The notes below the pieces were generated by a model. The model was given only the letters and a program-made list of their open reading frames with translations, was not told the DNA's origin and did no database searches. From Zopfochytrium polystomum (lineage: Eukaryota > Chytridiomycota > Chytridiomycetes > Chytridiales > Chytridiaceae), in the NCBI GenBank assembly GCA_025765615.1, contig JAIVFJ010000134.1, positions 1 to 64,000 of the forward strand: a stretch of 64,000 bases of DNA, given 5' to 3'. This document shows positions 2,294 through 64,000 of the stretch, in pieces; position 1 is the stretch's first letter; the number at the start of each line of letters is the position of its first letter. Position numbers and translations under genes: made by a program.

Positions 2294-3038
2294 TAATGAT
2301 TGAATTCGCACGTGTATTGTTTTTGTGCTGCACGGACTAGCGCGAGGGAAACAGAGAGTGAAAGAAATAATAGCCTCAGTGAGTGCGTCAGTGTCGTAAT
2401 CAGCCACCCTCCGCTAATCAGTGCAATCCGCCATATTGATTTGACCGTTACTTCGAACATCCGACGTTCATGAATTCGTTCCAATTGGATTGCCTCAGCC
2501 AATCAAATTGAATTCTTCAAATTGGAATGCCTCGTAGCCTCTCGGCCCAAAGTCACACTCCACGGTAAAATCCGCGCGAGTCTCTTCCATGTTCCTATAG
2601 TCTATGTAGAATGAGACGGCGATTCCTCGTGTAAGCTCTATGTTGGTGGTCAAAAGAACGGAGCTAGTCTGGAAGAAATTCATATGAGCACAAGCCGCAG
2701 ATTCACCAGGACCGGCTCACTGATTCAAATTTGTCCTCTTCGGCACTGAGCTCATGCCGATACGGCATGGAATCATTGGATAAGGTAACAAGCCTTAAAC
2801 GTGCTCGCACGGGAGGAGTGGGAAGCGATGGGCAATGAGCCCGTGTTGTCCCAGTCAAAACGAACCGTTCACGGACTTGAAGCATCCATGCCCACACACC
2901 CTTCTTAACTCGATATCTCGTCAGGAGCTTCCCTTCCGGCATACAGCATTTACGACTCTGCGCAAAGGGGCGTTTTTTTTTTTTTTTTTTTTTAGATTCT
3001 TGCGAAGGTTCAAGCACTTCAGGCTAAGCCACCCAAAC
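2294..3038. other. Intergenic, no gene seen
   Basis: About 745 bases between two F-box/LRR family members. It holds short direct echoes of 'AATTGGATTGCCTC..AATCAAATTG' around 2480-2530 and a T-run at about 2972-2992, just before the gene at 3039. I see no coding or RNA gene. Confidence 0.6.
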
Positions 3039-4421
3039 ATGCTCGACACAATTGCGGTCGACATCGTCTTCGCGATCGCCGATTTCTTGCCGGCTGCGGG
3101 CGATTGCTGCAACCTCAGGGCGGCATGCCGCCATCTGCGAGACGCACTGGCCCCGCTCGTCTTCCGCTCTGTCCGCGCAACAAACCTCGACCAAGACCGC
3201 GCCGCCATCGCGGCGCTCGTTGCCGCACAGGGCCACCATTTTCAGCACGTCCGTTTTCAGTGCATGCTCCACGGAGAGCGATACGACGACGACTGCAGTG
3301 ACGCATCATCAGAAGGCGGAGACGATATTGTCAACTCGGAGGGGCCGACTTTTGTCCCGACGGACATACTCTTGGGACTGCTGGCGACAAACATGCATGC
3401 CCTCACACTCGAGTTCATCGCAGACGACAACTTCGAGCCAAAAGACTACTACTGGGTGGTAGTCGAAAACAGATTCATGGGATCTGCCTACATATCCTAT
3501 GAAACGGAATCTGCGAAAGATGTTGCCGCTGCCGAAAGGAGGTGGGAATGGCGCCGAGTCATGGCGGACACGTGGAGGGCGGTCGCTTTAAACACAAGAA
3601 TCCGCAGCCTCACCATTCGATCGCTTCCGCCAATCATCACCACCACGTGGCACAGACCGGAATGGGCCTCATTTGTCGACCAGCTTGAGCACTTGTCCAT
3701 CGGAATGTGGGGTGCTTGTTACAATCCCACGCAGCGGTACTCCATAGAAACCGACGGCTACCAAGACTTCCTGACGGTGGGGCTTCAGAATTCATTTTTT
3801 AATCATGCGGAGGGCCTTGTTTCCTTTGACTTCGTCTCCAGCCCGTGCGGTACATATGGTGGCGACAACCAGGTGTCAGGCACGCCCTTCACTCTTCTCC
3901 CATCCGATATGCCTCGACTGCGTAGATTGCGCCTCCAAAACTGTTTCTTCGATGCTGCTCTTCTGGACTTTCTCCAGGCTCACACTCCAACTCTTGAATC
4001 AATCCACCTGATAGACTTCATGGCGGCATCGAACGCTCTGAATTGGGCTCGGGGTACTACCGATGAAAATCTCACATGGGCAGGGTTTTTTGATGGAATC
4101 GCGAGCGCGAAGCCACTCCTGCTGACAGATTTTAGACTCACGATGAGAAAAGTTTCGATGGATGAGGTTGCGACGACATTTCAAGATTCTTCAGACGGGC
4201 TCCAAATACTCCATGCAATGGAACAAAAATTGGCAGAAGACGAAGCCTTTCCGTTGTTTTACTATGGTTACTTGTCCAACCAGAACGGATGCATAATCAG
4301 GCAGGCTGCAGATAAAATAGTGCGAAGCTTTACGAACGGAGAGGATCTAGCTTCCTACGAGCGGCTGATGGCGATCGTGCGAGCAAACAAAGACGGTTCA
4401 ATTTTATGTCGTAATAAATGA
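3039..4421 (+). CDS. F-box/LRR-like protein (intact family member)
   Basis: A single-exon gene of 460 residues. The ATG at 3039 is chosen because every relative starts here with M-x-D-x-L/I-x-VDI. Residues 1-40 look like an F-box (VDIVFAIADFLPA..CCNLRAACRHLRDALAPLVFRSV). The rest carries irregular leucine-rich stretches (LTLEFIADDNFEP, IRSLTIRSLPP, LEHLSIGMW, MPRLRRLRLQNCFFDAALLDFLQ), then a conserved C-terminus (EDEAFPLFYYGYL). F-box proteins usually recruit substrates to SCF ubiquitin ligases, and the LRR-like part would bind the substrate; that role is inferred. Two broken siblings lie directly upstream on the same strand and related copies occur at 26.4, 33.4 and 49.6 kb, so this family duplicates and decays locally. 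Confidence 0.75.
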   Translation: MLDTIAVDIVFAIADFLPAAGDCCNLRAACRHLRDALAPLVFRSVRATNLDQDRAAIAALVAAQGHHFQHVRFQCMLHGERYDDDCSDASSEGGDDIVNSEGPTFVPTDILLGLLATNMHALTLEFIADDNFEPKDYYWVVVENRFMGSAYISYETESAKDVAAAERRWEWRRVMADTWRAVALNTRIRSLTIRSLPPIITTTWHRPEWASFVDQLEHLSIGMWGACYNPTQRYSIETDGYQDFLTVGLQNSFFNHAEGLVSFDFVSSPCGTYGGDNQVSGTPFTLLPSDMPRLRRLRLQNCFFDAALLDFLQAHTPTLESIHLIDFMAASNALNWARGTTDENLTWAGFFDGIASAKPLLLTDFRLTMRKVSMDEVATTFQDSSDGLQILHAMEQKLAEDEAFPLFYYGYLSNQNGCIIRQAADKIVRSFTNGEDLASYERLMAIVRANKDGSILCRNK

Positions 4422-8148: not shown

Positions 8149-9858
8149 TCAATCTTCGACACTCTGCAACATTCTCTTCCCAGGAATTGTCACAATGAGC
8201 GCCGCTGTCGCGTAAATGTCCACGAGCGTGGCTTCATTGCCGTAAGCCGCAAACGAGCTTGCGCGGATGGTAAACGCCTTTGGCCTCCTCACCCACACTA
8301 GGTCCTTCAACACTTCGCAGTTGGCGTCGCGAGTCAGAATATCGTACAGTTCCCGCTTCTGGCCGCCCATCCATTCGCACCTCGCCGCAAAGTTCGGTCC
8401 CACCAGAAGCACGGCGCCATCGCCGCAGCAGTTGATTCGCACGCTGCTGCCAAAGTTGTAACCGTTCGGCTCAATAGAGTAGGGTCCGTATCCCTGCTGC
8501 TTTTCCTCTCCGTCGTCCTCCCAGTCCGCTTCGTAGATCGCGGCGACTTCGAACTCGAGGCCCGCGGACTTGACGGCGGACGTGAGGAGGTAGTCTTCAC
8601 CCTTGAGGTCGGCGAGTTTCAGGTGCAGGCCACCGCCTACGGCTTTCGAGTACTCGTGCGCCAGCGCAAAACCCAGTTCCCCGCCGTCAGGCATGAACAG
8701 CGGGTCGGACAGTAGCTGCTTCAGGAACGACTCCACAGATGATCCTGGCATGTCCACGGACGGCGCAGGTACGTCGTTAGCAGCGTCTTCCTCGGCTTCG
8801 GTAACGCGGTGCAAGTTGAAAGTAAGGGTCACGCGGAGCCCGTCGACGACTGGGAGAATCTCGTGCTCGCAGTCCGAAAAAAACGCGGCCCACTGCAGGA
8901 CCGTGCCGCCCACCTTATTTCCAGACCGCTCGGCCCAGTCGTGCACCACCTCTCGCCCGGCGTGTCGCACAACAAGCTGGCCACCGGTGAAGGCAACGGG
9001 AAGGCACACAACCAGCGACCCAAACATGGTCGCGCCGCGCGGGGTGTCTCGGTGCGGCCTGAAAAACCCGCCCGGCCCGTACGCGTTGATCTTGTACAGC
9101 TCCGCGCGGACGGGCACGTCGAACTCGCAGTCACGTCTCGACCGCCAGCCCGACGTTGCGTGCGCCGTCCCGGTGCAGGCGTGCAGGTCATCTTTGCGAT
9201 CCGAGCGGCGGTTGCGCGGCGGAAGAGCGTGTGTCGCCGCTTTTACGATTTCGGCGCAGGCGTCTCGCAACGCTCCGCCGAGCTCAAAGTCGGCGCGGTC
9301 GACCTTGCGGGCGTCCCTGTAGGTCTTGTCGAGCACCGTCTCGGCGCCGCGGCCGAACAAGGCCGGGGAGGAGACCGAGTCGAGGACGGAAGCCCAGTCG
9401 GCGGCGCTGGCCGTGGCAATGTCAAGCACGCGCGCCGTCGTCGAGGGTTTGACGGCGTCAGGAAAAAAGACGAGCGGCCGGTCGGGGCAGGGGGCAGCTC
9501 CGCCGGCGGTGAAGACGGCGGTGGAGGCGACGGCGGCGACGGCCTCGTCCAGCTGGAGGAACCGGCTGATGTTGTACAGCCGTGGGTGTGCGGGGAGGGC
9601 TGCAGCCGCGGCGCGGAAGCAGGAGCGCAGCTTGCGAGCGCTTTTGCTGTTTTCATCGTCGTTCAGCTTGGGTCCGTCGAGCGCGGGCGTGGTGAGGTTG
9701 AAAAAGTCGAAGCCGGACAGGAAGGCGAGGCAGGGGGCCGGGTGCATGCCCGCTGAGCGGAGGGCTTTGCAGGTGCTCGTCAGGCGACCGTCTGCCTCGA
9801 GGTCGTTGAGCAGCCGCTGGATGCGGCGAAGGACCTCGGCCGGAAGGCGATCGAGCAT
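8149..9858 (-). CDS. F-box protein with 2-oxoglutarate/Fe(II) oxygenase domain
   Basis: A single exon of 569 residues from the ATG at 9858. It opens with an F-box-like helix bundle (MLDRLPAEVLRRIQRLLNDLEADGRL, residues 1-35). Residues about 252-350 form a prolyl-4-hydroxylase-type double-stranded beta-helix: AELYKINAYGPGGFFRPHRD supplies the HxD iron ligands (H269, D271), CEHEILPVVDG the distal His (H332), and GLRVTLTFNL the Arg (R342) that binds 2-oxoglutarate. All catalytic positions are present, so it is probably an active hydroxylase or demethylase of unknown substrate. The F-box suggests coupling to an SCF ubiquitin ligase (inference). The frame stays open upstream of 9858 for 28 codons without an ATG. 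Confidence 0.8.
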   Translation of the reverse strand: MLDRLPAEVLRRIQRLLNDLEADGRLTSTCKALRSAGMHPAPCLAFLSGFDFFNLTTPALDGPKLNDDENSKSARKLRSCFRAAAAALPAHPRLYNISRFLQLDEAVAAVASTAVFTAGGAAPCPDRPLVFFPDAVKPSTTARVLDIATASAADWASVLDSVSSPALFGRGAETVLDKTYRDARKVDRADFELGGALRDACAEIVKAATHALPPRNRRSDRKDDLHACTGTAHATSGWRSRRDCEFDVPVRAELYKINAYGPGGFFRPHRDTPRGATMFGSLVVCLPVAFTGGQLVVRHAGREVVHDWAERSGNKVGGTVLQWAAFFSDCEHEILPVVDGLRVTLTFNLHRVTEAEEDAANDVPAPSVDMPGSSVESFLKQLLSDPLFMPDGGELGFALAHEYSKAVGGGLHLKLADLKGEDYLLTSAVKSAGLEFEVAAIYEADWEDDGEEKQQGYGPYSIEPNGYNFGSSVRINCCGDGAVLLVGPNFAARCEWMGGQKRELYDILTRDANCEVLKDLVWVRRPKAFTIRASSFAAYGNEATLVDIYATAALIVTIPGKRMLQSVED

Positions 9859-10258
9859 TGGGAACTGTTGACTGACCGACGGCGATCGATGAAGGGAAGG
9901 AAGTGCCGCGGAGTCGGGTGGCGGATCCGCTGTTGTTGGCAAAGTCGTGAGTCAAAAATCTTTTTTCGTTTTGTTGGTTTTTTTTTTCTTTTTTTTTTCT
10001 CGCGTCGTTTCTTCGTCAGAAGCTTGCTTGGCTGTCGCAGTCAAACCCGTCATCAAAGGCGTTTGGGGGTGAGCTCGAAGAATGCGCAGAGGGAGTGTGG
10101 CGTTTCTTGGTGTACGCGGGGGGTTTCTTACTCTGATCAACTTGGTCAAGCGTTTACTTAGGGGGTGGGGGAAGGTACGATACTCGAACAGAGACCTTGA
10201 TGATATTCAGCACAGGTGAAAATTTCATACTATCATTCTCTAGAGCATGCTTCTGCGG
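9859..10258. other. Intergenic with T-rich runs
   Basis: Divergent/convergent gap with T-rich runs (9961-10000). No gene or RNA seen. Confidence 0.5.
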
Positions 10259-11008
10259 TCAAACCACCATTGAGCCACCAGCCCCTGGGGCAACGCCTTT
10301 AAACATCTTTCTAATCGCCTCTCGTGCACCAGAGTTGCTTTTCAGCCACCGCTGGAACTTGCCTGAACCTTCCCACCACTCGAGGACTTTCACATCTGTT
10401 GCATCCTTGAATGGTAGCGAGTCCCAGTCGATTTCAAGGCCGCTGTCCATCCACCACTGCAAGCTTTCAGGCGAATTCCACTCAATTGCGAGGGAAATGG
10501 AATCTCTGCTGTATCTGAGTTCGTACCCACTGTCCATCCACCACTGAAGCACTTGGGTGTGGCCGTTCCTGCTGGCTAGGTCCATTGCTCTTGCGCTGTA
10601 CTTGAATTCGAGGCCGCTGTTCTTCCACCACTGCAGCACTTGGGTCTTTCCTGTCTGCGACGCGCCGCAAACCGCATCTTCATCGTACTTCATGGGCAGC
10701 CCGCTGTTCTTCCACCACTGCAGCACAGGAACTTGCCCAAAGCGACTTGCTGCCGCGATCGCCTCGTCGTACGCGAACTCGAGTCCACTGTCCTTCCACC
10801 ACTGCAACACACCGACCCGACCGTTGACACAGGCGCCCTCAATGGCCCTTGCGTCGTACAGAAGTGGGAGTCCGCTTCCCTTCCACCACTGCAGGAGATC
10901 CAGACGCCCCCGTCGGCTTGCAGATTCAATGGCAGACTCCGTGTACACGAGCTCCAGCCCGCTGCGCCTCCACCACTCGAGGACCTCGATGGAATCGGCG
11001 CAGTCCAT
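10259..11008 (-). CDS. 'LQWW' ankyrin-like repeat protein, probably N-terminally truncated
   Basis: From the ATG at 11008 the frame encodes 249 residues made of about seven repeats of roughly 33 residues, each like VLQWWKDSGLEFAYDEAI..AS..G. The regular A..AS..G turn followed by a hydrophobic-WW helix fits an ankyrin-like solenoid for protein binding. The ancestral start is visible at 11138-11136 (MTTQPSRRRPRQLPSNLE..SSQDRFAAATLFRL). It runs into a different frame because about 160 bases present in the neighbouring copy (between FRL/LRL and DDDIAMDS) are missing here. The gene therefore either starts at 11008 or is a pseudogene. The paralogue at 11320-12261 is clearly broken. Confidence 0.6.
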   Translation of the reverse strand: MDCADSIEVLEWWRRSGLELVYTESAIESASRRGRLDLLQWWKGSGLPLLYDARAIEGACVNGRVGVLQWWKDSGLEFAYDEAIAAASRFGQVPVLQWWKNSGLPMKYDEDAVCGASQTGKTQVLQWWKNSGLEFKYSARAMDLASRNGHTQVLQWWMDSGYELRYSRDSISLAIEWNSPESLQWWMDSGLEIDWDSLPFKDATDVKVLEWWEGSGKFQRWLKSNSGAREAIRKMFKGVAPGAGGSMVV

Positions 11009-11319
11009 AGCGATGCTGGAGGCGGAAGAGGGTGGCAGCGGCAAAGCGGTCCTGCGACGATTTGCTGTAGCTGCAGATCAGGACCTCGAGGTTGGAGGGC
11101 AGTTGGCGGGGACGACGGCGTGAAGGCTGTGTGGTCATCGTGCGGGAACTGAACCAGACAAGGTTTGGTTGGTTCAAACACTGATGATGATCATAAGCGA
11201 CCTGCTTCTGCGGCACAAGCGCGACGCGCTCTCCTGGAGCAGCCGCCTTCAAGGCATTATTGAGGGGAGGAAACACAACAAATAACAACTGCATAGGTTA
11301 AGTTTGATGCGATTACTGC

Positions 11320-12261
11320 CTAAAGCATGGTTCTGCGGTCGAGCCACCACTGTGCCACTGTTGCCAGGGGTGCCGCGCCGCGCTCGAGGATGCATTTAAA
11401 CACCTCTTCCGCACCAGAGTTGCCTTTCCGCCACAGCTGGAACAGACCCGAATCCTCCCACCACTCGAGGACTTCCACATGTGTAGTATCCTTGAAAGGT
11501 AACGAGTCCCAATCGATCTCAAGGGCGCTGTCCAACCACCACTGCAAGCAGGCAGGCAGATTCATAAAAATGGCGATGGAGATGGCGGTACTGCTGTTCT
11601 TGAGTTCAAATCCACAATCCATCCACCACTAAGGCACTTTGGTGTGGCCGCACGCGCTGGCGAGGGCCATCGCCCTCGCGCTGTAATTGAATTCGAGGCC
11701 ACTGTCCTTCCACCACTGCAACACTTGGATGTGTCCTGTCTGCGACGCGACGCAAACTGGTTCATCAAAGTACTGCAGGGGCAGCCACTGTCCTTCCACC
11801 ACTGCAGCACATCTACTTGCCCTCTGCTGCAGGCGACCTTGATCGCTCCGACATCGTACAGAAGCGTGAGTCCGCTCTCCTTCCACCGCTGCAGGAGATC
11901 CAAGCGACCCCGTCCGCTCGCGGCTTCAACGGCACGCTTGGTGTATCGGAGCTCCAACCCGCTGCGCCTCGACCAATCAAGGATCTCGACAGATTCCGCC
12001 GAGTCCATCGCGATGTCGTCGTCCTCCAGCTTGTCGAGCCGCTCGCGCGGTAGGTTGCGGAGCAAATGGTCCAGGGCTTCGACGGGGCCGACAGAGCCGA
12101 GCGAGTGACGAAGCACGAGCAAGCAGACGGCCTGGATCCGCGGGAGGCGGAGGAGGGTGGCTGCGGCGAAGCGGTCCTGCGGCGGGATGCTGTAGTCGCA
12201 TCAGGTCCTGGACGTTGGAGGGCAGTCGGCCGGGGAGTCGGCGTGTGGGCTGTACGGTCAT
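11320..12261 (-). pseudogene. 'LQWW' ankyrin-like repeat gene with three lesions
   Basis: The ATG at 12261 starts MTVQPTRRLPGRLPSNVQDLM, like the upstream part of the neighbour. Two bases are missing near 12190, so homology continues in another frame (DRFAAATLLRLPRIQ, LDKLEDDDIAMDSAESVEILDW, then WW repeats). A single base is missing in the codons for KDSGLPLQY (about 11785). A CAG-to-TAG change at 11629-11631 stops the repeat that reads LQWW in the neighbour. After it, repeats continue in frame to the terminal stop (WWMDCGFELK, CLQWWLDSALEIDWDSLPF, VLEWWEDSG). It is a pseudogene unless the assembly has errors. Confidence 0.75.
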
Positions 12262-26431: not shown

Positions 26432-27714
26432 ATGATCGACAAGCTTTCAGTAGACATCTTGATCTCCGTTGCAGATCTCCTACCTGCTGCCAGCGATCGC
26501 TGCAACCTCAGTGCGACACGCCGCCATCTGCGAATCGCTCTCGCACCGTCGGTGTTCCACTCTGTCCGCGCCACGAACATCGAGCAGGACCGCGCTGCAC
26601 TGGCGGCGCTGGCCGCCGCACATGGTCTCCACTTCCGGCAGGTGCGGTTTCAGTGCATGCTGCACGGCAACCCGCTCGAAAGCTCTGAGGTGGAGGAGAA
26701 CGCTGACAGCCGTGCCCGAGACGGCCTGGAATGCGGGGGACGATGGCAGACGATCTGAAGAGCGTCGCGATCTATCAGCGAGCGGACACGGCTATGACAA
26801 CTCCCAGGGTCCGATCTTCGAATTCGTCGCGACGGACATACTATTGGGAAAATAGCTCCAAATATTCGTGCCCTCACACTGGAGTTTGTGGCCGACCAGG
26901 ACTTTAAGCCGGACGGTTGCAAAAAGGTGGACGATCACCATGGAATTGGAGGATCCATTTACATCTCCACAGAGGCTGAGAGTTTTGAGATGGCGCCGTC
27001 GCTGAAAAAACTTCGAGTGGCGCCGAGTCATGGCGAACATATGGAGGGCAGTTGCCTCAAACTTGACAATCCGCAGCCTTACCGCTGATCTTCGATCACG
27101 CGCACAACCTGCTTTCGCTCGGCTTCGTCTCCAACGAGTTCGACACGTACGGTGGCACGTTCATCGATGTGGGGGCAGAAACCGCCTTTGGGTCGTCAAA
27201 CATGCCTCGGTTACTCAAGTTCCGCGCGGAAAACTGCTTCTTCGATGCACCGCTTGTCGAATTTCTGCGATATCACGCTTCCACACTCGAAACGATTCAC
27301 CTCGTCAACTGTATGGCGGCAGTGAGCCTTTTCCACCAACTGGAGGAACCAAATCCCACATGGAAGGGGCTGTTTGAAGGGATCTTGGGCGCTGAACCGC
27401 ACAATCTGAAAGATTTGAGGGTAACCACGAGAAAAATATCGATTCACGACATAGCAAAGTGGGCCCAACAGCGCTCACTTGCGGAACAAGAAATAATCCG
27501 CCGAATCGAGCAGAAGCTGAGCGAAGACGAAACCTACCCCTTGTTTTACTACGGATGGCTGGATCCTGACTACGGATTTGTCAGTGTGGCTTGGACGTTT
27601 GTGTTGGAAAGCTTTGAGACAGGATCTGATTTGGCAACTCTCGAGCGCCTGATGGGGGTTGTTCGTAGGAATCGTGAGGCTTCAAGATTGACGCTGCAAA
27701 AAGAGCATGATTGA
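26432..27714 (+). pseudogene. F-box/LRR-like gene, broken copy of 33375-34829
   Basis: The ATG at 26432 starts MIDKLSVDILISVADLLPAA..DRCNLSATRRHLRIAL, close to the intact gene at 33375. Breaks: frame loss near 26730-26750, a frameshift plus TAG around 26848-26856 where the intact copy encodes GQTAPNIRAL, and a deletion of about 173 bp. The deletion joins the codons for IRSLT (27080) directly to LIFDHAHNLLSL; the missing bases correspond to 34027-34199 of the intact copy. Downstream, the frame is open to 27714 and nearly identical to the intact copy. The high identity dates the duplication as recent. Confidence 0.85.
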
Positions 27715-33079: not shown

Positions 33080-33376
33080 TCGATTACAACCTGCGGTTAC
33101 CAAGACTTCCTGTCGAAGCAACTCAAGCAGTTCTTCTTTGATCACGCGTGCACGAATTGCAGGAACTTCTATGCCGATGCAGAAATCGTATTCCTCAATT
33201 ACTTCAGCTCCGCTTAGAGAACTGCTTTTTCGATGCGCCGTTTCTCGCTTATTTGCGCTTACTTTCTGGACTTCAATATTTTTTGGGTTATAGCAAAGCT
33301 GTGCCACTTGCACGAAATTTTGACGACACACCAGGTGCGATCGCGATCGCTGACCGCTGCAACCTTACTGCGGCAT
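33080..33376 (+). pseudogene. Decayed fragments of F-box/LRR-like gene
   Basis: 33082-33175 matches the family segment GYQDFLSxQLKxxxFDHA. 33180-33260 matches the MPRLLKFRAENCFFDxP segment with frame breaks. 33338-33370 matches the F-box phrase ADRCNLTAACR. The pieces sit immediately before the intact gene at 33375 and supply its 5' sequence. Confidence 0.65.
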
Positions 33377-34829
33377 GCCGATCGACACGCTTTCCGTCGA
33401 CATATTGATAGCGATCGCCGACCTTTTACCGGCTGCCGAAGACCGCTGCAACCTCAGCGCCACATGCCGCCGTCTGCGAGCCGCTCTGGAGGTGTCGGTC
33501 TTCCGCTCTGTCCGCGTCACGAACGTCGAGCAGGACCGCGCCGCAATTGGGGCGCTGGCCGCCGCACATGGTCTCCACTTCCGGCAGGTGCGGTTTCAGT
33601 GCATCATGCATGGGAATCCAGTCGAAGACTTTGCCGAGGAGGAGGCCGCTGACAGCGCTGCCCAAGACGACCTGGAAGGTGACGACGACGGCCGACAACC
33701 TGAAGAGCGTCGCGATCCATCGGCGGGCGTACTCGGCTTTTCAAACTCCGAGGAGCCGATCTTCATTGCGGCGGAGATACTATCTGGGCAAACAGCTCCA
33801 AATATTCGTGCCCTCACACTGGAGTTTGTAGCCGACCAGGAATTTGAGCCGGACGGCTGCAAATGGGTGGACGATCACCAAGGAATTGGGGGTTCCATTT
33901 ACATCTCTGCAGAGGCTGAGAGTTTGGAAGATGCCGCCATCGCTGAAGAAAACTTCGAGTGGCGCCGAGTCATGGCGAAAATATGGAGGGCAGTTGCATC
34001 AAACTTGACAATCCGCAGCCTTACCGTTCGATCACTCCCGCCAAACATCACAACAACATGGCACAGACCGGAATGGGCTGTCTTTGTGGGTCAACTGGAG
34101 CACTTGGCACTTGAAATGTGGGGTGGAAAAAGCGACAGCGATTTCTGCTCAATTACAACCAACGGTTACCAAGACTTTTTGTCGAGGCAACTCAAGACGC
34201 TGATCTTCGATCACGCGCACAGCCTGCTTTCGCTCGGCTTCGTCTCCAACGAGTTCGGCACGTACGGTGGCACCTTCATCGATGTGGGGGCAGAAACCGC
34301 CTTTGGGTCGTCAAACATGCCTCGATTACTCAAGTTCCGCGCGGAAAACTGCTTTTTCGACACACCGCTGCTCGAATTTCTGCGATCTCACACTTCCACA
34401 CTCGAAACGATTCACCTCGTCAACTGTATGGCGGCAGTCAGCCTTTTCCCCGAAATGGAGGAACCAAATCCCACATGGAAGGGGCTGTTTGGAGGGATCT
34501 TGGGCGCTGAACCGCACATTCTGAAAGATTTGAGGGCAACTACGAGAAAAATATCGATTCACGACATAGCAAAGTGGGCCCAAAATCGCTCACTTGCACG
34601 ACAAGAAATAATTCGCCGAATCGAGCAGAAACTGAGCGAAGACGAAACCTACCCCTTGTTTTACTACGGATGGCTGGATCCTGACTACGGATTTGTCAGC
34701 GTGGCTAGGTCGTATGTGTTGGAAAGCTTTGAGACAGGATCTGATTTGGCAAGCCTCGAGCGCCTGATGGGGGTTGTTCGGAGCAATCGTGAGGCTTCAA
34801 GATTGACGCTGCAAAAAGAGCATAATTGA
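33375..34829 (+). CDS. F-box/LRR-like protein (intact family member)
   Basis: Single exon, 484 residues, ATG at 33375 (MPIDTLSVDILIAIADLLPAA). Residues 1-45 are F-box-like. An acidic linker follows (EDFAEEEAADSAAQDDLEGDDD). The body has leucine-rich segments (IRALTLEFVADQEFEP, IRSLTVRSLPPNITTTW, LEHLALEMWGG, MPRLLKFRAENCFFDTPLLEFLR) and ends with EDETYPLFYYGWLDPDYGFV and a basic tail. It is the functional partner of the pseudogene at 26432-27714, about 90% identical over the last 550 bp by eye. Likely an SCF adaptor with an LRR-type substrate domain (inference). Its start codon lies at the junction with an older F-box fragment. Confidence 0.8.
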   Translation: MPIDTLSVDILIAIADLLPAAEDRCNLSATCRRLRAALEVSVFRSVRVTNVEQDRAAIGALAAAHGLHFRQVRFQCIMHGNPVEDFAEEEAADSAAQDDLEGDDDGRQPEERRDPSAGVLGFSNSEEPIFIAAEILSGQTAPNIRALTLEFVADQEFEPDGCKWVDDHQGIGGSIYISAEAESLEDAAIAEENFEWRRVMAKIWRAVASNLTIRSLTVRSLPPNITTTWHRPEWAVFVGQLEHLALEMWGGKSDSDFCSITTNGYQDFLSRQLKTLIFDHAHSLLSLGFVSNEFGTYGGTFIDVGAETAFGSSNMPRLLKFRAENCFFDTPLLEFLRSHTSTLETIHLVNCMAAVSLFPEMEEPNPTWKGLFGGILGAEPHILKDLRATTRKISIHDIAKWAQNRSLARQEIIRRIEQKLSEDETYPLFYYGWLDPDYGFVSVARSYVLESFETGSDLASLERLMGVVRSNREASRLTLQKEHN

Positions 34830-42225: not shown

Positions 42226-45893
<3,668 letters not shown>

Positions 45894-52468: not shown

Positions 52469-53197
52469 GGCGAAGTGACGACTTTTCGTGAAGGTCACTC
52501 GGCTGCTGAAAGCGCCGAGGGGGCCCGCATATTTCTGTCTCTTGGAAGAGGGAGAGCGAGAGCAGAGCAGCAGCAATTCCGCTTGGCGTGCGGTGGCGTC
52601 GGAGGTCGTAGACACGATTTCCAAAAGAGGGAAATCCGGTGCCAACCCGGCCGTCGGCCGGTCCGACAGATCGGCGGCGAAGGCATCAAGCACTTTTGGG
52701 CGGTGGCTACACGCTTCCAGGCCTTCCAGCCTTTGGATTAGGTTGCCCTTGCCGCCCCGCCAAGAGGAGGTGGACGTGGCCAAGGTGTCGCGGCTCTTCT
52801 ACCCACCCCACTTCCCTTCACCTAGTGTTTTAATCGCAGCTCGATGTGCTACCCCCCGCTCATTTCTGCAAAAGCGGCAGTGGGACCGGGACCTGGGATC
52901 CGTCTGGGATCGGGATGAGCGCACCATTCGCCGCGGTGCCATCATATGATTGTTCTCGCAGAGGCAGGAGCATGCGGTAATTCCGCAGTGGCCTGGGTGG
53001 CGTCGGAGTAATCCCCGCAGACACGAAATCTCGCTGCGAGAGGCGCAGTCCAGATGGGAGGCTGAGCGTAAATATTCCTTTTTTGGATTGGACAGTCCTT
53101 CGAATGGAAACAAGGGAAATCCGGTGGTGGAGCGGAAAACCCGGACCGGTCGGCGAAGCCAAAACACTTTAGCTTGGGCGGCGCCGCGAGGGCTGAG

Positions 53198-53199
53198 CC

Positions 53200-53262
<63 letters not shown>

Positions 53263-53263
53263 A
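53198..53263. repeat. (CA)n microsatellite upstream of micro-exon gene 1
   Basis: Nearly continuous CA repeats, about 60 bp, followed by shorter ones at 53323-53346. The sister gene has a shorter CA tract at 55674-55690 in the same position. Confidence 0.9.
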
Positions 53264-53275
53264 CTCTCTGCACCT

Positions 53276-53281
53276 TATAAA
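53276..53281 (+). promoter_or_regulatory. TATA box of micro-exon gene 1
   Basis: TATAAA in CCTTATAAAGGCAGGCC, 135 bp before the ATG at 53416. The homologous place in gene 2 (about 55708) reads CCTTAAATGCAGGCC, so the TATA is lost there. Confidence 0.55.
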
Positions 53282-53415
53282 GGCAGGCCACTGTCGCAGC
53301 CGTCACATTCGTCCGCAGACTCACACACACACACACGTACACAAACACCCACATTCACACCCCTTCACTGCTCGCAACTTCCTCGCCTCGCCCGACTCGG
53401 ACCAAGACCAAACCG

Positions 53416-54609
53416 ATGATCGCCCGCTCTTTCACGCTCGGACTCGGACTCCTCGTCCTCGTTCTTCTCCTGTCCGCATCATTCGGCAGCTTTGCACGTG
53501 AGCACCCACCGACTTTTTTTTTTTTTTTTTTTTTTCTTGTAGCAAGCCATCTGATATACCTGCTTTCGAAGCCGTCTCAAAAAACTTAATTGGCGTCAGT
53601 ACTAAGGGCATAGGGCCAGGTTAGCCTCTTTTAAAGTCCCGCGCAGACTTTCTTACACAATACTGACCCAATTTTTGTTTCCCAAATGTGCATTGGCTAG
53701 CATCTAAGCCAAACGGCAAGTTCGCTTTTAGATCCCCCTGACCACCGACCCATCATGCAAAGTGTTTTGATCGCAAGTCTTTGTACTTCCTATCCCCTCA
53801 TTGCAGTGGGTGCTAGCAAAAGTGAGCGCGTGCCAATGTATTGAAATCGTCACCTGCTGACCTGCTTTCCAAGTCCCAAGAAACTTGATGGGAGTCGGCC
53901 CAGGTAATAACCAGGAAGCCTCCCTCGATGGCTTCAAACCCTCCATCCGAATTGCAGCCCGCCTACTTTGAGTCCCAAGCAGACGTTCTGCCCCTTTCCC
54001 CCGTTTCTTTTCGCAAATCTAATGCACAATCCCCCCATTGTCGATCAGGCACTGGATTTAAGCCAGGCAAGTTGTCCTCGCTCGCTTTCGCAAAGCAATT
54101 TTTGACCGCCTTCTTCATGCGTAGTGATCGGCGTCGCGTTTCCCGCTCGTGAGTAGATCCCGATCAGATTGAAACTGTGGTTTACTTTGCTAATCGCAAC
54201 TTTCTCCCCCAAATTCGCCTTGGCTAGTGTCGAAGGCAAACGGCAAGTTCGATTTTACTTTTCCTTTCTCACATCCATGTTCTAATACTTTTGTAACAGG
54301 AGGCGGTGGTAAGTCGCTTTGCTGTACGGGATGTCTTGTCTCTTCGACAAATCTCTCACTCGTTCAAACATTCTCATCGCTTCAGGAGGGAAAAGTGGAA
54401 GGGTGAGTCTCGGTTCATTCTCATTATTACCGCAAGATTACATTCTAACTTTTTTTTGAACGAAAAGAGCCGAGTTGCCCGACGATGATGCTGACTTTGC
54501 GAATCCTGCCCGTTGTCTCAGCGCCGTCCCACTTTTTCTCTGTTTTTTCTTCCTGTTTGTGCATGCTTATTTCGTCCAGCTCTCCAAATATATTACCGAA
54601 CGTGAATGA
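53416..54609 (+). CDS. Micro-exon gene 1: secreted short peptide, 10 exons
   Basis: Exon 1 (53416-53497, 82 nt) encodes a signal peptide: MIARSFTLGLGL, then LVLVLLLSASFGSFA. Then come 53572-53598 (27), 53701-53715 (15), 53807-53821 (15), 53874-53903 (30), 54049-54066 (18), 54228-54242 (15), 54300-54308 (9), 54386-54402 (17) and the last exon 54580-54609 (30, TGA). Every internal exon to 54308 enters and leaves in phase 1, so each can be skipped without frame loss. Total 258 nt, 85 residues. Three introns use GC donors (53716, 54067, 54243; all GCAAGT). The mature part is short, basic and Gly/Ser/Lys/Pro-rich. Function unknown; a secreted variable peptide is the inference. Confidence 0.65.
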
Positions 54610-54659
54610 CGTTTTTGATCTGGGTGGTCGGGGAGTGAGATTAATGGGCGAGGAGTGCG

Positions 54660-54990
54660 CGTGATTAAGCCAAAGCAAAGAAGACGTCGGACTGCAATCC
54701 TATGATTCGAGTGCAATTCACGAGCGCTATCACCGACTATATTTTCAGTTGTGCGTCTGCTCATACCATGTTGGGGTTTTGGTGTCTGTGTGAAACGCGC
54801 AGATACCAATGTCTTAATTCCTAATGGAGAGGACACTTCTCTGAAGGCTTCGCAGTGGTACCGGCGTTTGCCCGGGTTTGTGGTGAATCTACAAAAATTC
54901 TGCAGCGGGAAACACAACTGCATCCTTGTCCTTGCAACCGAAGACGAGAAGATTTGCTCAAGTAATAGAACAGACAAAGAATACCAAAAT
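54660..54990. repeat. Duplicated segment, copy 2
   Basis: Partner of 50519-50900, same orientation, between the two micro-exon genes. Confidence 0.75.
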
Positions 54991-55085
54991 GACATCGACG
55001 GACTTGATGCTGTAAGGCCAAGCGTTGACTACTTCGATGGATTGTTTTCAACAAGCATTGTGGCCGCAGCAGTCCCGAACCGAAG
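54985..55085 (-). pseudogene. Decayed exon of the secreted-type gene at 51010-52468
   Basis: GACATCGACGGACTTGATGC and the following bases match 51475-51560 (exon 4: SFKAVSTRPYSVKSVDV). Together with 54660-54990 this shows that the 3' part of that gene was once copied between the micro-exon genes. Confidence 0.6.
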
Positions 55086-55090
55086 TACGC

Positions 55091-55833
55091 ATTTTGGCAG
55101 AATACTTTTTCTTTTATTTTCTTTCAATCAAAATATTTAAAAGGATCTGTCTGTCTGCGTGCCTGTTATCCTGCCCAAAATGCCAGCCAGATTGACAAAC
55201 AACCAGAATTACAAGGTTGAACCAATCAATCAATATGAATGTACCAGGATACATAAATTCAAGGTTGGCTTGTCATTGCACAAATTGGTAAGCATTCTCC
55301 ACCACAACGCAAGCGAAACCAACTAAAAATAAAATAATAATAATGATAAATACAAATAAATCAAAATAAAGAAGCGAAAGAAGCGATTGATTGGCAACAG
55401 CGTGAATTTCCTTTTTGGCCCGTCAAGAGAGTTACTTGGGATGTGTTAATAAATCGCGAGTCTGAATTTCCTCTGTCGGAAGCGGTCTTCTTGCTACAGC
55501 CAGCATCAAATCTGACTGTTGCGTGAAGAGACTGCCTCCGACAGAGGTGCTTGACGGATTCGCGACCCAACTGGGAACACCGCTTGTTCCTGTGGCGGCC
55601 GGACCGCCGGCGAAGCCAAGGCACTTTCTGCTCGCCGCACGAGACACAACGCCGCAGGGCGGCTGAGCCGACAGACACACACACACACACTCGCACACTC
55701 ACACACCTTAAATGCAGGCCACCGCCGCCGCCGTCGTCCGCACACACCCGCTCACACACACACGCACGTCGACACCCACATTCGAATTCACATTCGCTGC
55801 TCGCCTCGCCCGACTTGGACCAAGACCAAAACG
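55091..55833. other. Upstream region of micro-exon gene 2
   Basis: AT-rich at 55250-55380, then GC-richer. From about 55500 it is alignable with the upstream region of gene 1 (GGACCGGNCGGCGAAGCCAA, GAGCCNACA(CA)n, AGGCCACNGNCGC, CGCTCGC), so promoter and first exon were duplicated together. Confidence 0.6.
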
Positions 55834-56930
55834 ATGATCGCCCGCTCTTTCACGCTCGGACTCGGACTCCTCGTCCTCGTTCTTCTCCTGTCCGCATCAT
55901 TCGGCAGCTTTGCACGTGAGCACTCGCCGATTTTTTTTTTCTTTTCGCAAATCGTCATCTGCTAAACCTGCTTCCTAGCCGTACTTGGATATCGACCAAG
56001 TGAGTGCCCGGCAATCGCCCTAAATGGCCTCAAACCATTCGACCGAATCGCAACCTGGCAATTTTTTGAGTCCGGTGGGACGTACTAGAACAATGCTGAT
56101 TCTGCAAATCTCCTCCCAACTTCCCCTTTGTGGCCCGTTCAGCCAGCATTAAATGTGAGCGTGCGCCAAGCTTTTATTGAAATCGTCACTTTCTAACCAG
56201 CTTTCCAAGTTCCTACATTGGCAAACGGAATCGGCCCCGGTGAGTGGCTGGAAAAATCGCTGGACACCATCAAAACCGTCGAACGTAATCGCAACCCACT
56301 CTTTTTGTGTCCTGCACTGTCATTCTGCCCCTTTCACTTCGTTCATTTCCGCAAATGCCCTCTTATCGCCCCATTGCTGCTCAGCCTCTAGACCCAAGCC
56401 TAGTAAGTTGTATTGTCTTTTCTCGCTCTCGCAAAAGGTTTTTTCTGACTGGCTTGGTTTTGTGCAGTAATTGGTATTTCAACTGTTGGCGGTACGTACA
56501 TCCGCAGCAAACTGAAGGAATCCTGTACAATGCTGATCGCAATTCTTTATGTCCCAAAAATTGTCGATTTGCTGTCTGGAATGCCTCGCACTCGTTCAAA
56601 TGCTTTGGTTGCTTCAGGAGGGAGAGGTGCGAGCGTCGCTGGCACATCCGGATCCGGGGGGAAAGGAGGGAAAGGCGGAAGGGTGAGTCTCGCTTCCTTC
56701 TCATGATTGCGGCAAGTTTATGACGCTTACTGTTACGATTGAACGAAAAGAGCCGAGTCGCCCGTCGTTAATTCCTCTCCTTGAGAATTTGTTCGTTGTC
56801 CGGTTTATCATTTTTTTTTCTCTTCCTTTTCGTGCTTGTGCATTCTTCTTTCTTCGTCCAGCGCTCCCAATATTGCGCAGTACAACAATTTCATCGAGCC
56901 CTTTGGAAGTTTATTCTGTATGAGCGATAG
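55834..56930 (+). CDS. Micro-exon gene 2: secreted short peptide, 8 exons
   Basis: Exon 1 (55834-55915) is identical to that of gene 1. Next come 55979-55999 (21), 56143-56154 (12), 56210-56239 (30), 56385-56402 (18), 56468-56491 (24), 56618-56682 (65) and the terminal exon 56862-56930 (69, TAG). Introns are GT-AG, internal exons up to 56491 are phase 1 on both sides, and the sum is 321 nt, 106 residues. The 30- and 18-nt exons correspond to those of gene 1 (…NGIGP-/…MGVGP-; …RPKP-/…GFKP-), and both pairs are separated by 145-nt introns. The 65-nt exon is Gly/Lys-rich (GKGGKGG). A mature exon-shuffled secreted peptide is inferred; transcripts are needed for proof. Confidence 0.65.
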
Positions 56931-56960
56931 TCCTCACCGGACTGAACTCCATCTCCACGA

Positions 56961-57104
56961 TCACGACGGCGCACTATCCAGCACTCTCCCAACCGTCCTC
57001 CCAAATTCCGCCGCCGACGTCGGGTTGTTCTGCCCCGTCACGATTCGCCCGTCGATTACCACGTGCACGCTCCACAGCGCGTTAGCCATTTCATAAGAGG
57101 CGAG
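56961..57104 (-). pseudogene. DJ-1/PfpI-type C-terminal fragment
   Basis: Minus strand LTALASYEMANAL, then VHVVIDGRIVTGQNNPTSAAEFG and a terminal helix, stop TGA at 56961. The VIDGxIVTGQNPxSA phrase is typical of the C-terminus of DJ-1/ThiJ/PfpI proteins. I find no catalytic-Cys exon upstream, so it is probably a remnant. Confidence 0.45.
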
Positions 57105-57957
57105 TGCCGTGAGGCGTGGGGAGTGCCTTTCCCAAGATGACGAAACCAATTTTTTTTCCTGACCACTTTCAAACTTGCCCAGCAGTTGTTGTTTCCCTTT
57201 GAGTTCCCTTGCCTTTCACTTGTTTTAAACTCAGTCGAATTCAACACGACGGAATCACGTCGCTTTCCGGGAGCGTTTTTTGGCCTCAGTTTTCAGAGTT
57301 GCTTCACCCGCCTCTCCGCCAGCCTGCCTTTAACACCTCCTCCCCTTCCTTCTGGTTCCTGCTCGCCAGAATTCACTGCGGTACGCGAAGACTGCAGTGT
57401 CACCGGTTGTAGTCTCCGTCGAGGTGCACGGCCGCGAGCAGCAGTTGATATTCGTTGACATTGCGTTGTCGGCGAAAATCGCGACAGGCCGTTCATTGGA
57501 GGTCGTCCCTCACTCATTGTTTCCTCCAGCTTGGAGAATTTTCATCTCTTATGATTGCTTTTTATAGGTGTTGAAATTTGGTCTTTGGCAGATTGTTGAC
57601 AGCTGAATCTCTTCAGCTGCTTGGGCCTTATCTGAGCAGCTTTGCAGGTTTGTGCTTTTCTGCTGCCTGGCGTTGGGCATGGTAGTGGCTATGGCAGTTG
57701 AGGGCAGGGAGCAAAACGAAAGAATCAACAAAGCCTTTCAGGGAGAGGGTGGGGAGGAACCTGCGGTGGGAAGGAGGTATGGGGGGCCTGGTGGAGTGGT
57801 CAAGGGAGTCAGTGATGGCGTTCCAGTCACCAAACCAGAAGGCTTGGTGGGGTAGTTGGAGTCAGATGAGGCAGAGAGTTGCACCATTTTTGCAAGTCAC
57901 GGAGCTCCTCAGATTGGGGTCAGCAGGCTAGAAAATATTTTGCAGGAGGATGGAGCG
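57105..57957. other. No gene supported
   Basis: Short open frames only. 57640-57950 is G-rich and may be part of the adjoining element's surroundings. Confidence 0.4.
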
Positions 57958-61510: not shown

Positions 61511-64000
61511 ATGCCGAAAAAGACCGAGAAGCAAAGCAAAACTCAGAGACAAGCGAGCAAAGCAATGACATCGACAGCCACTCGAGTCGCAACAACGTCG
61601 ACGACAACCGCCGGCACCCACGTCGTCTCCTGCCCCCACTGCCACGGCCTCGTCCCGCTGACGATGCTCCTCGCAGTCGACCAAAGCCGCGCTGCTGGAA
61701 TGGCCCCGCTCCCTGCCCGCGTCGTTCCTGCCACCTCCACTCAGCCCGCCGGAGAAGGCGGCAGCAAGATCACCCCACCCCCACCTGCATCCGTCACAAA
61801 GTTCGCCAGCGACCCAGTCCGCCCTGGCTTGGCAGCCTCAGGCACAAAGACGCCCGTCCGCACCCCGCCGGTCCGAACCGCCCTTCGAAAGTCCACTTCC
61901 AGCGTCAGCGTCCCCGCGTCGGCCACCCCGACGAGGAGGCAATCGCAGCCCTCCACGCCACCTACACCCGTCACTCCGGCTGTTGAGATGACCTCCTCCC
62001 GCCCGGCCGTTCCTGTCCCTGCGGACTCGAGTGATCATGACAAGCACCTTCAAGACGCGTACCCCCCCTCCCCGCCGTCCCCCGCGATGCCCCGCACCCC
62101 CGCAATCGCCGTCAGTGTCACGCCGCCAAGCACCCCTGGACAAGAGCCACCCACCGAGAGCGAGATACCGGTGATGCCTAACCTGGACATGGAAAGCATC
62201 CTGCGTACGGACCAGCAGCTCGGCGGCCGACGGTTCTTCCTCAGCGACGTGGTCAAGGTCAAGGGGCCTGAGCCGGCAGCTACACCGGTGGTGGATCTGC
62301 TCATGCCGGACGGGTCTGTGCGAGCGCCCGCGGCGCGTTCGGTGCCGGTGTCTCAGGCGAGGTACTGTGGACTGGGCGGCAGGTGGTCGCAGCTGGGCAA
62401 GCGGACCGTGTGGACGAGGTTGCCGACCGTGGTGCTGGAAGGCACGCTTGGTCGGAGCTTTGAGCCGCCGGAACTGTTCGATGCCCTGCGCGTCGTGGCG
62501 AACGATTTGGACAGCTTTGGAAGGTTCTTGGAAAAGCAGGTTCCATACAAGGTTCACCCTCCATTTATTTACATTTTCTTATTATGTTTGGTTTTTTCCA
62601 GTTCGCTTTGCCCACAACTCCTTACCTTGCTTGCACCTGCCAGGCCGTCATTTCATCCGGCATTTGGGATGATGCAGATAGTGCTGTTCGCGAGGTTCAG
62701 TCCGAATCGATAGAGTCTATCCGCAACGGGACTTTCGAGTCGAAGAGCACTGCCTTGATGCGCCAGATCAACGACGTGATCAAGGCCCTGGAAAATATCA
62801 TCAGTTCGGCGACGCATCTCGACGTCAACCAGTGGATTATTTGGCGAGAGGCGCAGGCGCGCGTCGTCATCCTCTCCAAGGAGCTCGAGGATGTCGTCTT
62901 GATCTGGGCAAGCTGGCGTTCATCGCTCAAGCTGCTTCACGTCGTTTACGACGCGAAGGGCAATTGGCCACTGAGAGGTCACTGCAGCTTGTGCTTGCAG
63001 CTGCTTGACGTAGTCGAACTGCTCTACACGGGCCTCGGGATATTCAAGGACGCTGCCGAGCTTTGGCTGCATCGGAAGGAGCTGATACGCTTCGTTCCCT
63101 TCCACGCAGAAGAACTGGTATGGCATTTTACTTGTACCACAGTCTGACATTACTAACGAGGAACAAAACGTAGCTATGGAAACAAGTACTCGAGAGCAAA
63201 AAGTTGCTTCTTGACGTCGTCCTTCCGCCTCACCGGCCAAAGTGGGGGCCGAAGCTAGTACCATTCAAGCTCAACTCCGACAGCAATTCCGAGTTTGCGC
63301 GAAAGCTCCGTTTCGTCTCGTCCGCCAGCGTAACCTACCGCGGCTTCGACGAGCACTACAGCACCTTGACGCTCAGTTGCAAGCGACCTATCGGCAGCGT
63401 GGCTCTGCCGATCGCAAACTGGCTTGAATTCAGCTCGGGCAGCGGCCGACGGCTTCGCGCCGCGGGGACGCTCAAGGACGACAGCAGGCGCAGGCTGCTG
63501 TCCCGATACATCCCGCACGGTCGGTTGCTGCTCAACCCGCAACTGCTTTCCGGAAGTGGTCCAAGTGATGGTGGCGGCGGCGCGAGGACGGGAGACGGCT
63601 GCTCATCTTTGCCGCCGCCTCCGCCGATCGAGACGGCGGAGGCGGTGATGCAGACCATCACGTTCGCGTTCGAGACGGCGCCCGACTTTCGTCTGCTCTG
63701 GGCCGCGACGGTCGCGGCTCTCGCCCTGGAGGAAGACGAGGCGGCGGCGCGATCGTCGCAGAGCGTGTGGCTGGGCACGACGAGGGAGGGCCACGAGGTG
63801 CTGCAGGTGGGTCTGGTCAGGACGAAACGGACCGAGGCGTGCCCCGAGGTCGCGTTTGACGGAAAGGAGCTAGTGTGGGTAGGCTGCATGTGTCCGGCGA
63901 CGTGCGAGAGCTGCTTTGGACTCGCCGGCGGAGCGTGCGAAAGGGGAAGGCAGAATTTGAACGGCCGCACTTACCAGGTTTATTTTGTCGGCTCGGTGTC
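61511..64000 (+). CDS. Large unknown protein, 3' end beyond window
   Basis: Exons 61511-62551, 62644-63117 and 63174 to the edge join in phase (GT-AG) for about 780 visible residues with no stop. The N-terminus has a CPHC pair (VSCPHCHGLVPL), then a long Ser/Thr/Pro-rich disordered part. An ordered helical region follows (RFFLSDVVKVKG; LPTVVLEGTLGRSFEPPELFDALRVVANDL; STALMRQINDVIKALENIISSATHLDVNQW), then a strand-rich section (LRFVSSASVTYRGFDEHYSTLTLSCKRP) and a Cys cluster near the edge (CMCPATCESCFGLAGGACERG). No family recognised. Pairs CPHC and CMCP/CESC may bind zinc. Confidence 0.7.

What the first reader, a model, noticed from the sequence alone, without database searches (positions are those of the whole stretch)
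53416..56930. Tandem micro-exon genes with a shared signal-peptide exon
Two adjacent genes begin with the same 82-nt signal-peptide exon and continue with exons of 9, 12, 15, 15, 15, 18, 18, 21, 24, 27, 30 and 30 nt. All of these are flanked by phase-1 introns, so any of them can be skipped without breaking the frame. My joined frames are open and sum to exact codon numbers (258 and 321 nt). The 30-nt and 18-nt exons, and the 145-nt intron between them, are conserved in both genes, although the peptides have diverged strongly. This matches the logic of the micro-exon genes (MEGs) of schistosomes: secreted, symmetric micro-exons, variable products. I know of no such system described in fungi. 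Skipping of cassette micro-exons would give many secreted peptides from one locus.
Basis: partly seen in the sequence, partly recalled or inferred. Interest (0 to 1): 0.93.

Follow-up and report, generated by a model that had tools for sequence, protein, structure and literature searches.

The report
Fungal signal-peptide genes with micro-exon arrays
In a chytrid fungus, two neighbouring genes share one identical 82-base stretch predicted to encode a secretion signal, followed by a row of tiny segments of 9 to 65 bases flanked by splice-site-like sequences and likely spliced into small, positively charged secreted peptides, a layout better known from parasitic flatworms and aphids.

Summary
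The window lies in Zopfochytrium polystomum (Chytridiomycota). Two tandem genes share an identical 82-nt predicted signal-peptide exon and continue as arrays of mostly symmetric phase-1 micro-exons. Ten such copies were found: types A, B and c on three collinear contigs, plus one on C325. Splice-site models trained only on chaperonin genes of this genome recover both arrays, scoring above all 500 shuffles each; in the window they are the two best chains, though a third comes close. Nine of ten copies keep the frame; exon indels are mostly multiples of three (4 of 5), intron indels not (2 of 21). Among B/c copies the signal exon is conserved while micro-exons differ at least as much as introns; among the three A copies they do not vary. 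The arrays contain duplicated exon-intron units. Predicted mature peptides have 60 to 70 residues, are strongly basic and glycine-rich. Splicing and exon skipping are untested: no RNA was available. The architecture resembles schistosome MEGs and aphid bicycle genes, without membership. Three protein searches found no relative in other species.

The parts
53276..53283 (+). TATA-like element upstream of gene A
   Evidence: TATAAAGG read by eye; not tested
53382..53527 (+). 5' module shared with gene B (5' leader, signal exon, start of intron 1)
   Evidence: 96% identical over 146 nt to 55800-55945
53416..53497 (+). gene A exon 1, 82 nt, predicted signal peptide MIARSFTLGLGLLVLVLLLSASFGSFA
   Evidence: identical to gene B exon 1; 10 protein-level matches in the genome
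53572..53619 (+). gene A exon 2, 48 nt (reader: 53572-53598, 27 nt)
   Evidence: 48-nt form chosen by the PWM chain; encodes KGIGP, like MGVGP of exon 5 and NGIGP of exon 4 in B/c
53701..53715 (+). gene A exon 3, 15 nt, GC donor
   Evidence: duplicate of exon 8 with flanks, 81% over 57 nt (D6)
53807..53821 (+). gene A exon 4, 15 nt
53874..53903 (+). gene A exon 5, 30 nt, aag acceptor
   Evidence: counterpart of exon 4 in B/c
54049..54066 (+). gene A exon 6, 18 nt, GC donor (gcaagt) where B has gtaagt
54125..54148 (+). gene A exon 7, 24 nt
54228..54242 (+). gene A exon 8, 15 nt, GC donor; duplicate of exon 3
   Evidence: in the PWM chain at the lower penalty only
54300..54308 (+). gene A exon 9, 9 nt
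54386..54402 (+). gene A exon 10, 17 nt, phase 1 to 0
   Evidence: the PWM chain, which allows symmetric exons only, has a 27-nt form to 54412
54468..54488 (+). gene A exon 11, 21 nt, SRVARR stop
   Evidence: counterpart in B and c copies; 9-nt in-frame deletion in C123a; acceptor score weak, 0.5
55708..55714 (+). TATA-like element upstream of gene B
   Evidence: TTAAATG read by eye; not tested
55834..55915 (+). gene B exon 1, 82 nt, predicted signal peptide
55979..55999 (+). gene B exon 2, 21 nt (33 nt in c copies and C325)
56143..56154 (+). gene B exon 3, 12 nt
56210..56239 (+). gene B exon 4, 30 nt, aag acceptor (or 56201-56239, 39 nt, cag acceptor; same frame)
   Evidence: the PWM chain takes the 39-nt form, but its cag is absent in C109b, C123c, C134c and C109c
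56385..56402 (+). gene B exon 5, 18 nt
   Evidence: same boundaries in the published model of the C325 copy
56468..56491 (+). gene B exon 6, 24 nt
56618..56682 (+). gene B exon 7, 65 nt, glycine-rich, phase 1 to 0
   Evidence: 6- and 9-nt in-frame deletions in c copies
56751..56771 (+). gene B exon 8, 21 nt, SRVARR stop
   Evidence: acceptor score weak, 1.1

Best explanation
Genes A and B share an identical 82-nt stretch predicted to encode a signal peptide, followed by rows of segments of 9 to 65 nt flanked by splice-site-like sequences, and they are likely transcribed, spliced exon by exon and secreted as basic, glycine-rich peptides of about 63 to 70 residues. The signal peptide is predicted to be cut at the join of exon 1 and exon 2 (SFA|P), so the mature peptide would come from micro-exons alone. 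The arrays likely grew by tandem duplication of exon-plus-intron units inside the gene and by gene duplication, while the 5' module was likely swapped or converted between A and B. Among B/c copies the micro-exons differ as much as introns or more, which suggests selection for new peptides or weak constraint. Because 8 internal exons in A and 5 in B are symmetric in phase 1, skipping any of them would keep the frame; whether the fungus uses this is untested (I give it about 0.3). What the peptide does outside the cell is inferred only from composition: binding to negatively charged surfaces, such as microbial envelopes or cell walls, is my first guess.
For: Ten copies in the genome: A, B and c on each of C134, C123 and C109, and one on C325; two other window segments match the same three contigs in the same order at 98 to 100%. 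Splice PWMs from 23 chaperonin introns of the same genome recover the arrays: score 41.4 in A against a shuffle maximum of 20.9, 34.3 in B against 19.7, 0 of 500 each at the lower penalty; 16.0 against 5.7 and 16.8 against 5.0 at the higher. The two best phase-consistent chains in the 64-kb window, both strands and three phases, are A (24.0) and B (22.3). Donor excess over shuffles and antisense; all GTRAGY donors of the two genes, 5 of 5 and 6 of 6, end model exons. Unusual aag acceptors are normal here: 3 of 24 chaperonin introns. Frame kept in 9 of 10 copies under copy-specific models; exon indels 4 of 5 multiples of three, intron indels 2 of 21, p = 0.0047. The C325 copy lacks the exon-7 acceptor but has another 9 nt upstream, keeping frame. 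Gene A's gcaagt donor stands where B has gtaagt. A published gene model of the C325 copy (P0001) uses, as mapped from its peptide, 7 of the 14 boundaries of my model, including the signal-exon junction and the 18-nt exon. SRVARR or SRAARR tail in 8 of 9 frame-keeping copies, SRR in C123a. A against C123c: dN 0.33, dS 0.92 in the mature part. Duplicated units: repeats D6 and D8 and intron similarity above shuffles.
Against: No RNA evidence. P0001 retains intron 2, skips exon 6 and reads past the exon-7 donor, and is only a gene model. C109b has a stop in exon 2 and a one-base insertion in exon 6. The third-position excess between A and B/c exons is not significant (4 pairs, p = 0.07 to 0.16). 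The indel test weakens to p = 0.06 if the exon-2 event is dropped and the nested exon-7 deletions are merged. The third-best window chain scores 21.2, close to B's 22.3. In gene B, 13 of 500 shuffles reach the same exon count at the lower penalty, though none the score. At the higher penalty exon 8 drops out of the A chain. The last acceptor is weak in both genes (0.5, 1.1) and some others lie at the low end of the training range. No homologue in other species.
Confidence: 0.78

Rival explanations
1. The genes are spliced as modelled but constitutively: the small exons are a by-product of internal exon-intron duplication and give one peptide each, with no programmed diversity. (This is one form of the best explanation; the odds overlap with it.)
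For: Most splice sites score within or near the range of ordinary introns; the three A copies show 0 of 182 variable micro-exon sites against 16 of 798 in introns, so the exons may all be needed; no skipped form is known.
Against: C109b carries its two lesions in exons that could be skipped without loss of frame; the published C325 model skips exon 6; both are weak hints.
Confidence: 0.5
2. The array is decaying: these are pseudogenes or non-coding transcripts whose signal exon was recently copied in, and the micro-exon chain is an accident of AG and GT sites.
For: Micro-exons vary as much as introns in B/c (39 of 182 against 105 of 634 sites); C109b is broken; signal-exon fragments also sit beside tRNA-Ser genes; third-position excess not significant.
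Against: PWM chains score above all shuffles, all GTRAGY donors end model exons, frame kept in 9 of 10 copies, conserved SRVARR end, dS above dN between A and the others.
Confidence: 0.12
3. The coding part is real but uses fewer, longer exons, as in the published model P0001 (136 aa), with several of my introns retained.
For: P0001 reads from exon 2 through intron 2 and exon 3 without a stop in C325.
Against: That reading rests on one copy, and downstream it is in another frame than the SRVARR end; the protein searches returned no annotated protein for genes A or B.
Confidence: 0.1

Closest known systems
Schistosome micro-exon genes (MEGs)
   Same: Signal peptide and a coding region made mostly of very small symmetric exons; mature part with higher dN/dS than the signal part; hard for automatic annotation (passages of PMC4350168 and PMC10526429).
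   Different: Fungus, not a flatworm; introns of 52 to 145 nt in the window instead of 100 to almost 5000; no sequence relation found; alternative splicing unproven; few copies.
Aphid bicycle genes
   Same: Many small internal exons of one phase, signal sequences, fast divergence, homology visible in gene structure (passages of PMC9168663).
   Different: Almost all bicycle internal exons are phase 2, genes average about 17 exons and carry CYC motifs; here phase 1, 5 to 8 symmetric exons, and no cysteine in the mature peptides.
Single regulated micro-exon in Trichoderma virens Xlr2
   Same: A functional micro-exon in a fungus; that paper also says micro-exons in fungi were tested before only in Schizosaccharomyces pombe (PMC11121469, abstract and passages).
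   Different: One micro-exon in a transcription factor, not an array in a secreted peptide gene.
Venom and conotoxin genes (recalled, no call)
   Same: Conserved signal exon and introns with faster-changing mature exons.
   Different: No array of micro-exons (recalled); no cysteine framework here.

Membership tests
Schistosome MEG | N-terminal signal peptide | not tested
   Hydrophobic N-terminus with small residues before the expected cut, read by eye only; no signal-peptide program was run.
Schistosome MEG | Most of the coding region in very small symmetric exons | tested here: inconclusive
   Gene A meets it: 174 of 294 nt in eight symmetric exons of 9 to 48 nt. Gene B does not quite: 105 of 273 nt in five symmetric exons, plus 65- and 21-nt exons. 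Both rest on predicted splicing.
Schistosome MEG | Isoforms by skipping of micro-exons | not testable with these tools
   No transcripts available.
Schistosome MEG | Families defined by protein sequence, apparently restricted to platyhelminths (PMC4350168, passage) | tested here: not met
   The organism is a chytrid fungus; three protein searches returned only its own protein and no Pfam family matched. MEG sequences were not compared directly.
Aphid bicycle genes | Internal exons in phase 2 | tested here: not met
   All predicted joins but the last are phase 1.
Aphid bicycle genes | CYC motifs | tested here: not met
   No cysteine in the three mature peptides counted, A, B and C123c.

The most novel reading that the evidence does not exclude
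A fungus has independently evolved a micro-exon gene family: one signal exon feeding a cassette row of symmetric phase-1 micro-exons whose programmed skipping yields tens to hundreds of secreted cationic peptides from one locus, with new cassettes added by duplication of exon-intron units and the signal exon moving between genes.
Probability: 0.28. Interest if true: 0.88.

Novelty: new variant of a known kind. Interest (0 to 1): 0.66.

Why it matters
Arrays of symmetric micro-exons in secreted proteins are known to me from two animal groups that live on hosts. An independent case in a chytrid fungus would show that the design arises outside animals, would give a system in which the birth of micro-exons by duplication of exon-intron units can be followed in ten related copies, and would warn that gene callers can miss such peptides in fungal genomes.

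Tried and rejected
Rfam over 52800-57600: one weak match near the CA repeat (SCARNA2, 25.1 bits against a gathering score of 48), taken as chance; so the idea that the conserved 145-nt intron hides a known RNA gene found no support. A PDB profile match to ribosomal protein uL2 (E 0.029) was taken as chance. Codon-position test: trend only. Accelerated evolution was tested on three pairs: nonsynonymous rate above intron rate in all three, significant in one (p = 0.042; others 0.14 and 0.31).

Choices made before counting: the strict donor motif was set after I had seen the donors. Of 11 fetched chaperonin stretches 10 entered the script and 8 gave introns; neighbouring matches more than 260 nt or 20 profile positions apart were passed over, and introns inside single matches were not dissected. 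Of the 24 introns 23 trained the splice models; the one with donor gccaaa was dropped, and for one intron the second-ranked cag acceptor replaced the top-ranked gag one. The indel table leaves out the 5' and 3' flanks; the 13-base event at exon 2 of B/c, which the script labelled intron 1, was counted by me as a 12-base exon event because the exon grows from 21 to 33 nt. In one search gene A was still modelled with the 27-nt exon 2. dN and dS were computed for 9 pairs drawn from W134a, W134b, C123b, C325, C123c and C109c. One search failed on a search pattern and was replaced.
Full report
WHERE IT IS. The window is part of contig C134 of an 80.16-Mb, 761-contig assembly. A protein search with the spliced gene A returned one protein, DFJ73DRAFT_769041 of Zopfochytrium polystomum, on a contig of 65,689 bases, which is the length of contig C325 of this assembly, where a copy of the gene lies; its peptide maps onto that copy. 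The species is a chytrid fungus of the order Chytridiales.

COPIES. The 82-nt exon with flanks matches 14 places. Ten are full gene copies: type A (C134, C123, C109), type B (same three contigs), type c (same three contigs, inverted, about 26 to 36 kb further on) and one B/c-like copy on C325. Two other window segments match the same three contigs at 98 to 100% identity (one search also lists eight weaker matches at 70 to 82% elsewhere), so these are three collinear copies of the region (haplotypes or recent duplicates; not resolved). The other four matches are fragments of the signal exon, each within about 100 bases of a tRNA-Ser(CGA) gene, without micro-exons that I could see.

GENE MODELS. 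Gene A: 82, 48 (or 27), 15, 15, 30, 18, 24, 15, 9, 17, 21 nt. Gene B: 82, 21, 12, 30, 18, 24, 65, 21 nt. Internal exons before the penultimate one are symmetric in phase 1. Joined frames are open to a stop codon: gene A 294 nt (273 with the shorter exon 2), gene B 273 nt. Three donors in A are gcaagt.

CHANCE. I trained donor and acceptor models on introns of chaperonin (PF00118) genes of the same genome and let a program chain symmetric phase-1 exons. At the lower penalty it finds A with 9 exons (41.4; shuffle maximum 20.9) and B with 6 (34.3; maximum 19.7); at the higher penalty A with 8 (16.0; maximum 5.7) and B with 5 (16.8; maximum 5.0); 0 of 500 shuffles reach the score in any of the four tests. 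It differs from my models in these places: a 39-nt form of B exon 4, a 9-nt form of B exon 7 (whose 65 nt exceed its limit; lower penalty only), a 27-nt form of A exon 10, and no A exon 8 at the higher penalty. It prefers the 48-nt A exon 2. By exon count alone, 13 of 500 B shuffles reach 6 at the lower penalty and 1 of 500 reaches 5 at the higher. Over the whole window, both strands and three phases, A (24.0) and B (22.3) rank first and second, but chains at 8227-10174 reach 21.2 and 21.1 with more, weaker exons. Strict donors (GYAAGY, GTGAGY or GTACGT, a set chosen after seeing the donors) number 10 in A and 8 in B, against shuffle means of 1.45 and 1.11, with 0 of 1000 shuffles reaching either; antisense 0 and 3. 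Of them 8 of 10 and 7 of 8 are model donors; of GTRAGY donors 5 of 5 and 6 of 6 are. A chain test with strict donors gives 5 exons for B (0 of 1000 shuffles) but none for A, because two A donors are not strict.

COMPARISON OF COPIES. Frames stay open in 9 of 10 copies under copy-specific models. C109b has a stop in exon 2 and a one-base insertion in exon 6; C123a has a 9-base deletion in the last exon that leaves SRR; C325 lacks the exon-7 acceptor but has another 9 bases upstream. Unique indels: exons 4 of 5 multiples of three, introns 2 of 21, one-sided p = 0.0047; 0.016 without the exon-2 event; 0.061 if also the nested exon-7 deletions are merged; 0.037 without intron-1 poly-T events and the exon-2 event. 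Variable sites among A copies: micro-exons 0 of 182, introns 16 of 798 (p = 0.054), exon 1 1 of 82; among B/c copies: exon 1 5 of 82, micro-exons 39 of 182, introns 105 of 634 (micro-exons against introns p = 0.15; exon 1 against micro-exons p = 0.002). Between W134b and two c copies, micro-exons differ at 15 to 16%, introns at 10 to 11%, exon 1 at 5%. In the mature part dN is 0.18 and dS 0.13 to 0.15 between W134b and c; 0.12 and 0.12 to 0.20 in the three pairs with C325 among B/c; 0.33 to 0.48 and 0.92 to 1.06 between A and the others. So recent divergence shows little constraint or mild acceleration and older divergence some constraint; single tests are weak.

HOW THE ARRAY GREW. Exons 3 and 8 of gene A with flanks are 81% identical over 57 nt; a 24-nt motif recurs in A intron 5 and B introns 2 and 4; introns 2 and 4, and introns 1 and 3, of B and of c are more alike than 30 simple shuffles each. 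The gene A peptide repeats KNLIGV, KGIGP and RNLMGVGP. This is what tandem duplication of exon-intron units would leave. The 5' module is 96% identical between A and B and exon 1 is identical, while the rest of the genes is far more divergent; gene conversion or exchange of the signal module is the likely cause (inference).

PUBLISHED MODEL. P0001, mapped from its peptide onto the C325 copy, uses the exon-1 donor, exon-2 acceptor, exon-3 donor, exon-4 donor, both sides of the 18-nt exon 5 and the shifted exon-7 acceptor: 7 of 14 boundaries of my model; its exon-4 acceptor lies 9 bases upstream of mine; it retains intron 2, skips exon 6 and reads past the exon-7 donor. I do not know whether RNA data went into it.

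PRODUCT. Mature peptides of A, B and C123c: 63, 63 and 65 residues (A with the shorter exon 2; 70 with the longer), pI 12, charge +11, 21 to 25% glycine, no cysteine. No Pfam family for 5 of 5 sequences, no convincing PDB relative, no relative in other species in three protein searches (in one search only the 7991 candidates sharing most words were scored).

KNOWN SYSTEMS. MEGs and bicycle genes share the design; see the membership table for what is and is not met. Paper searches for micro-exon genes or micro-exons with fungal terms listed no comparable fungal gene family that I recognised from titles and abstract starts; of the papers named I read passages only, and the library holds open-licence papers.

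VERDICT. A real, compact family of predicted micro-exon secreted peptide genes in a fungus; spliced structure likely, peptide diversity by skipping open.

Noticed in passing
L021:1225-1308, L022:5162-5245, L023:5415-5498, L024:5160-5243: Four fragments of the signal-exon module (about 33 bases upstream to 60 bases into the exon) each lie close to a tRNA-Ser(CGA) gene and diverge after it; the signal module seems to have been copied to an unrelated place.
   Followed up: partly
window 43000-43600, 53416-56771, 61600-62300: The region exists in three collinear copies (C134, C123, C109), while the chaperonin genes appear mostly in one or two copies; ploidy or segmental duplication not resolved.
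   Followed up: partly
window 8227-10174 (+): The third-best micro-exon chain of the window (17 weak exons, score 21.2) lies antisense to a 597-aa open reading frame; probably chance, not examined.
   Followed up: no
window 10259-12122 (-): Open reading frames with repeated LQWWKDSGL-like units, resembling degenerate ankyrin-type repeats (recalled).
   Followed up: no
window 1358-2293, 2835-4421, 27169-27714, 33375-34829 (+): Related open reading frames that share stretches (for example RSLPPNITTTW in 1358-2293 and 33375-34829), a local gene family.
   Followed up: no
window 53201-53340: Long CA repeat just upstream of gene A, with a sub-threshold SCARNA2 match on the minus strand (53055-53338).
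   Followed up: partly
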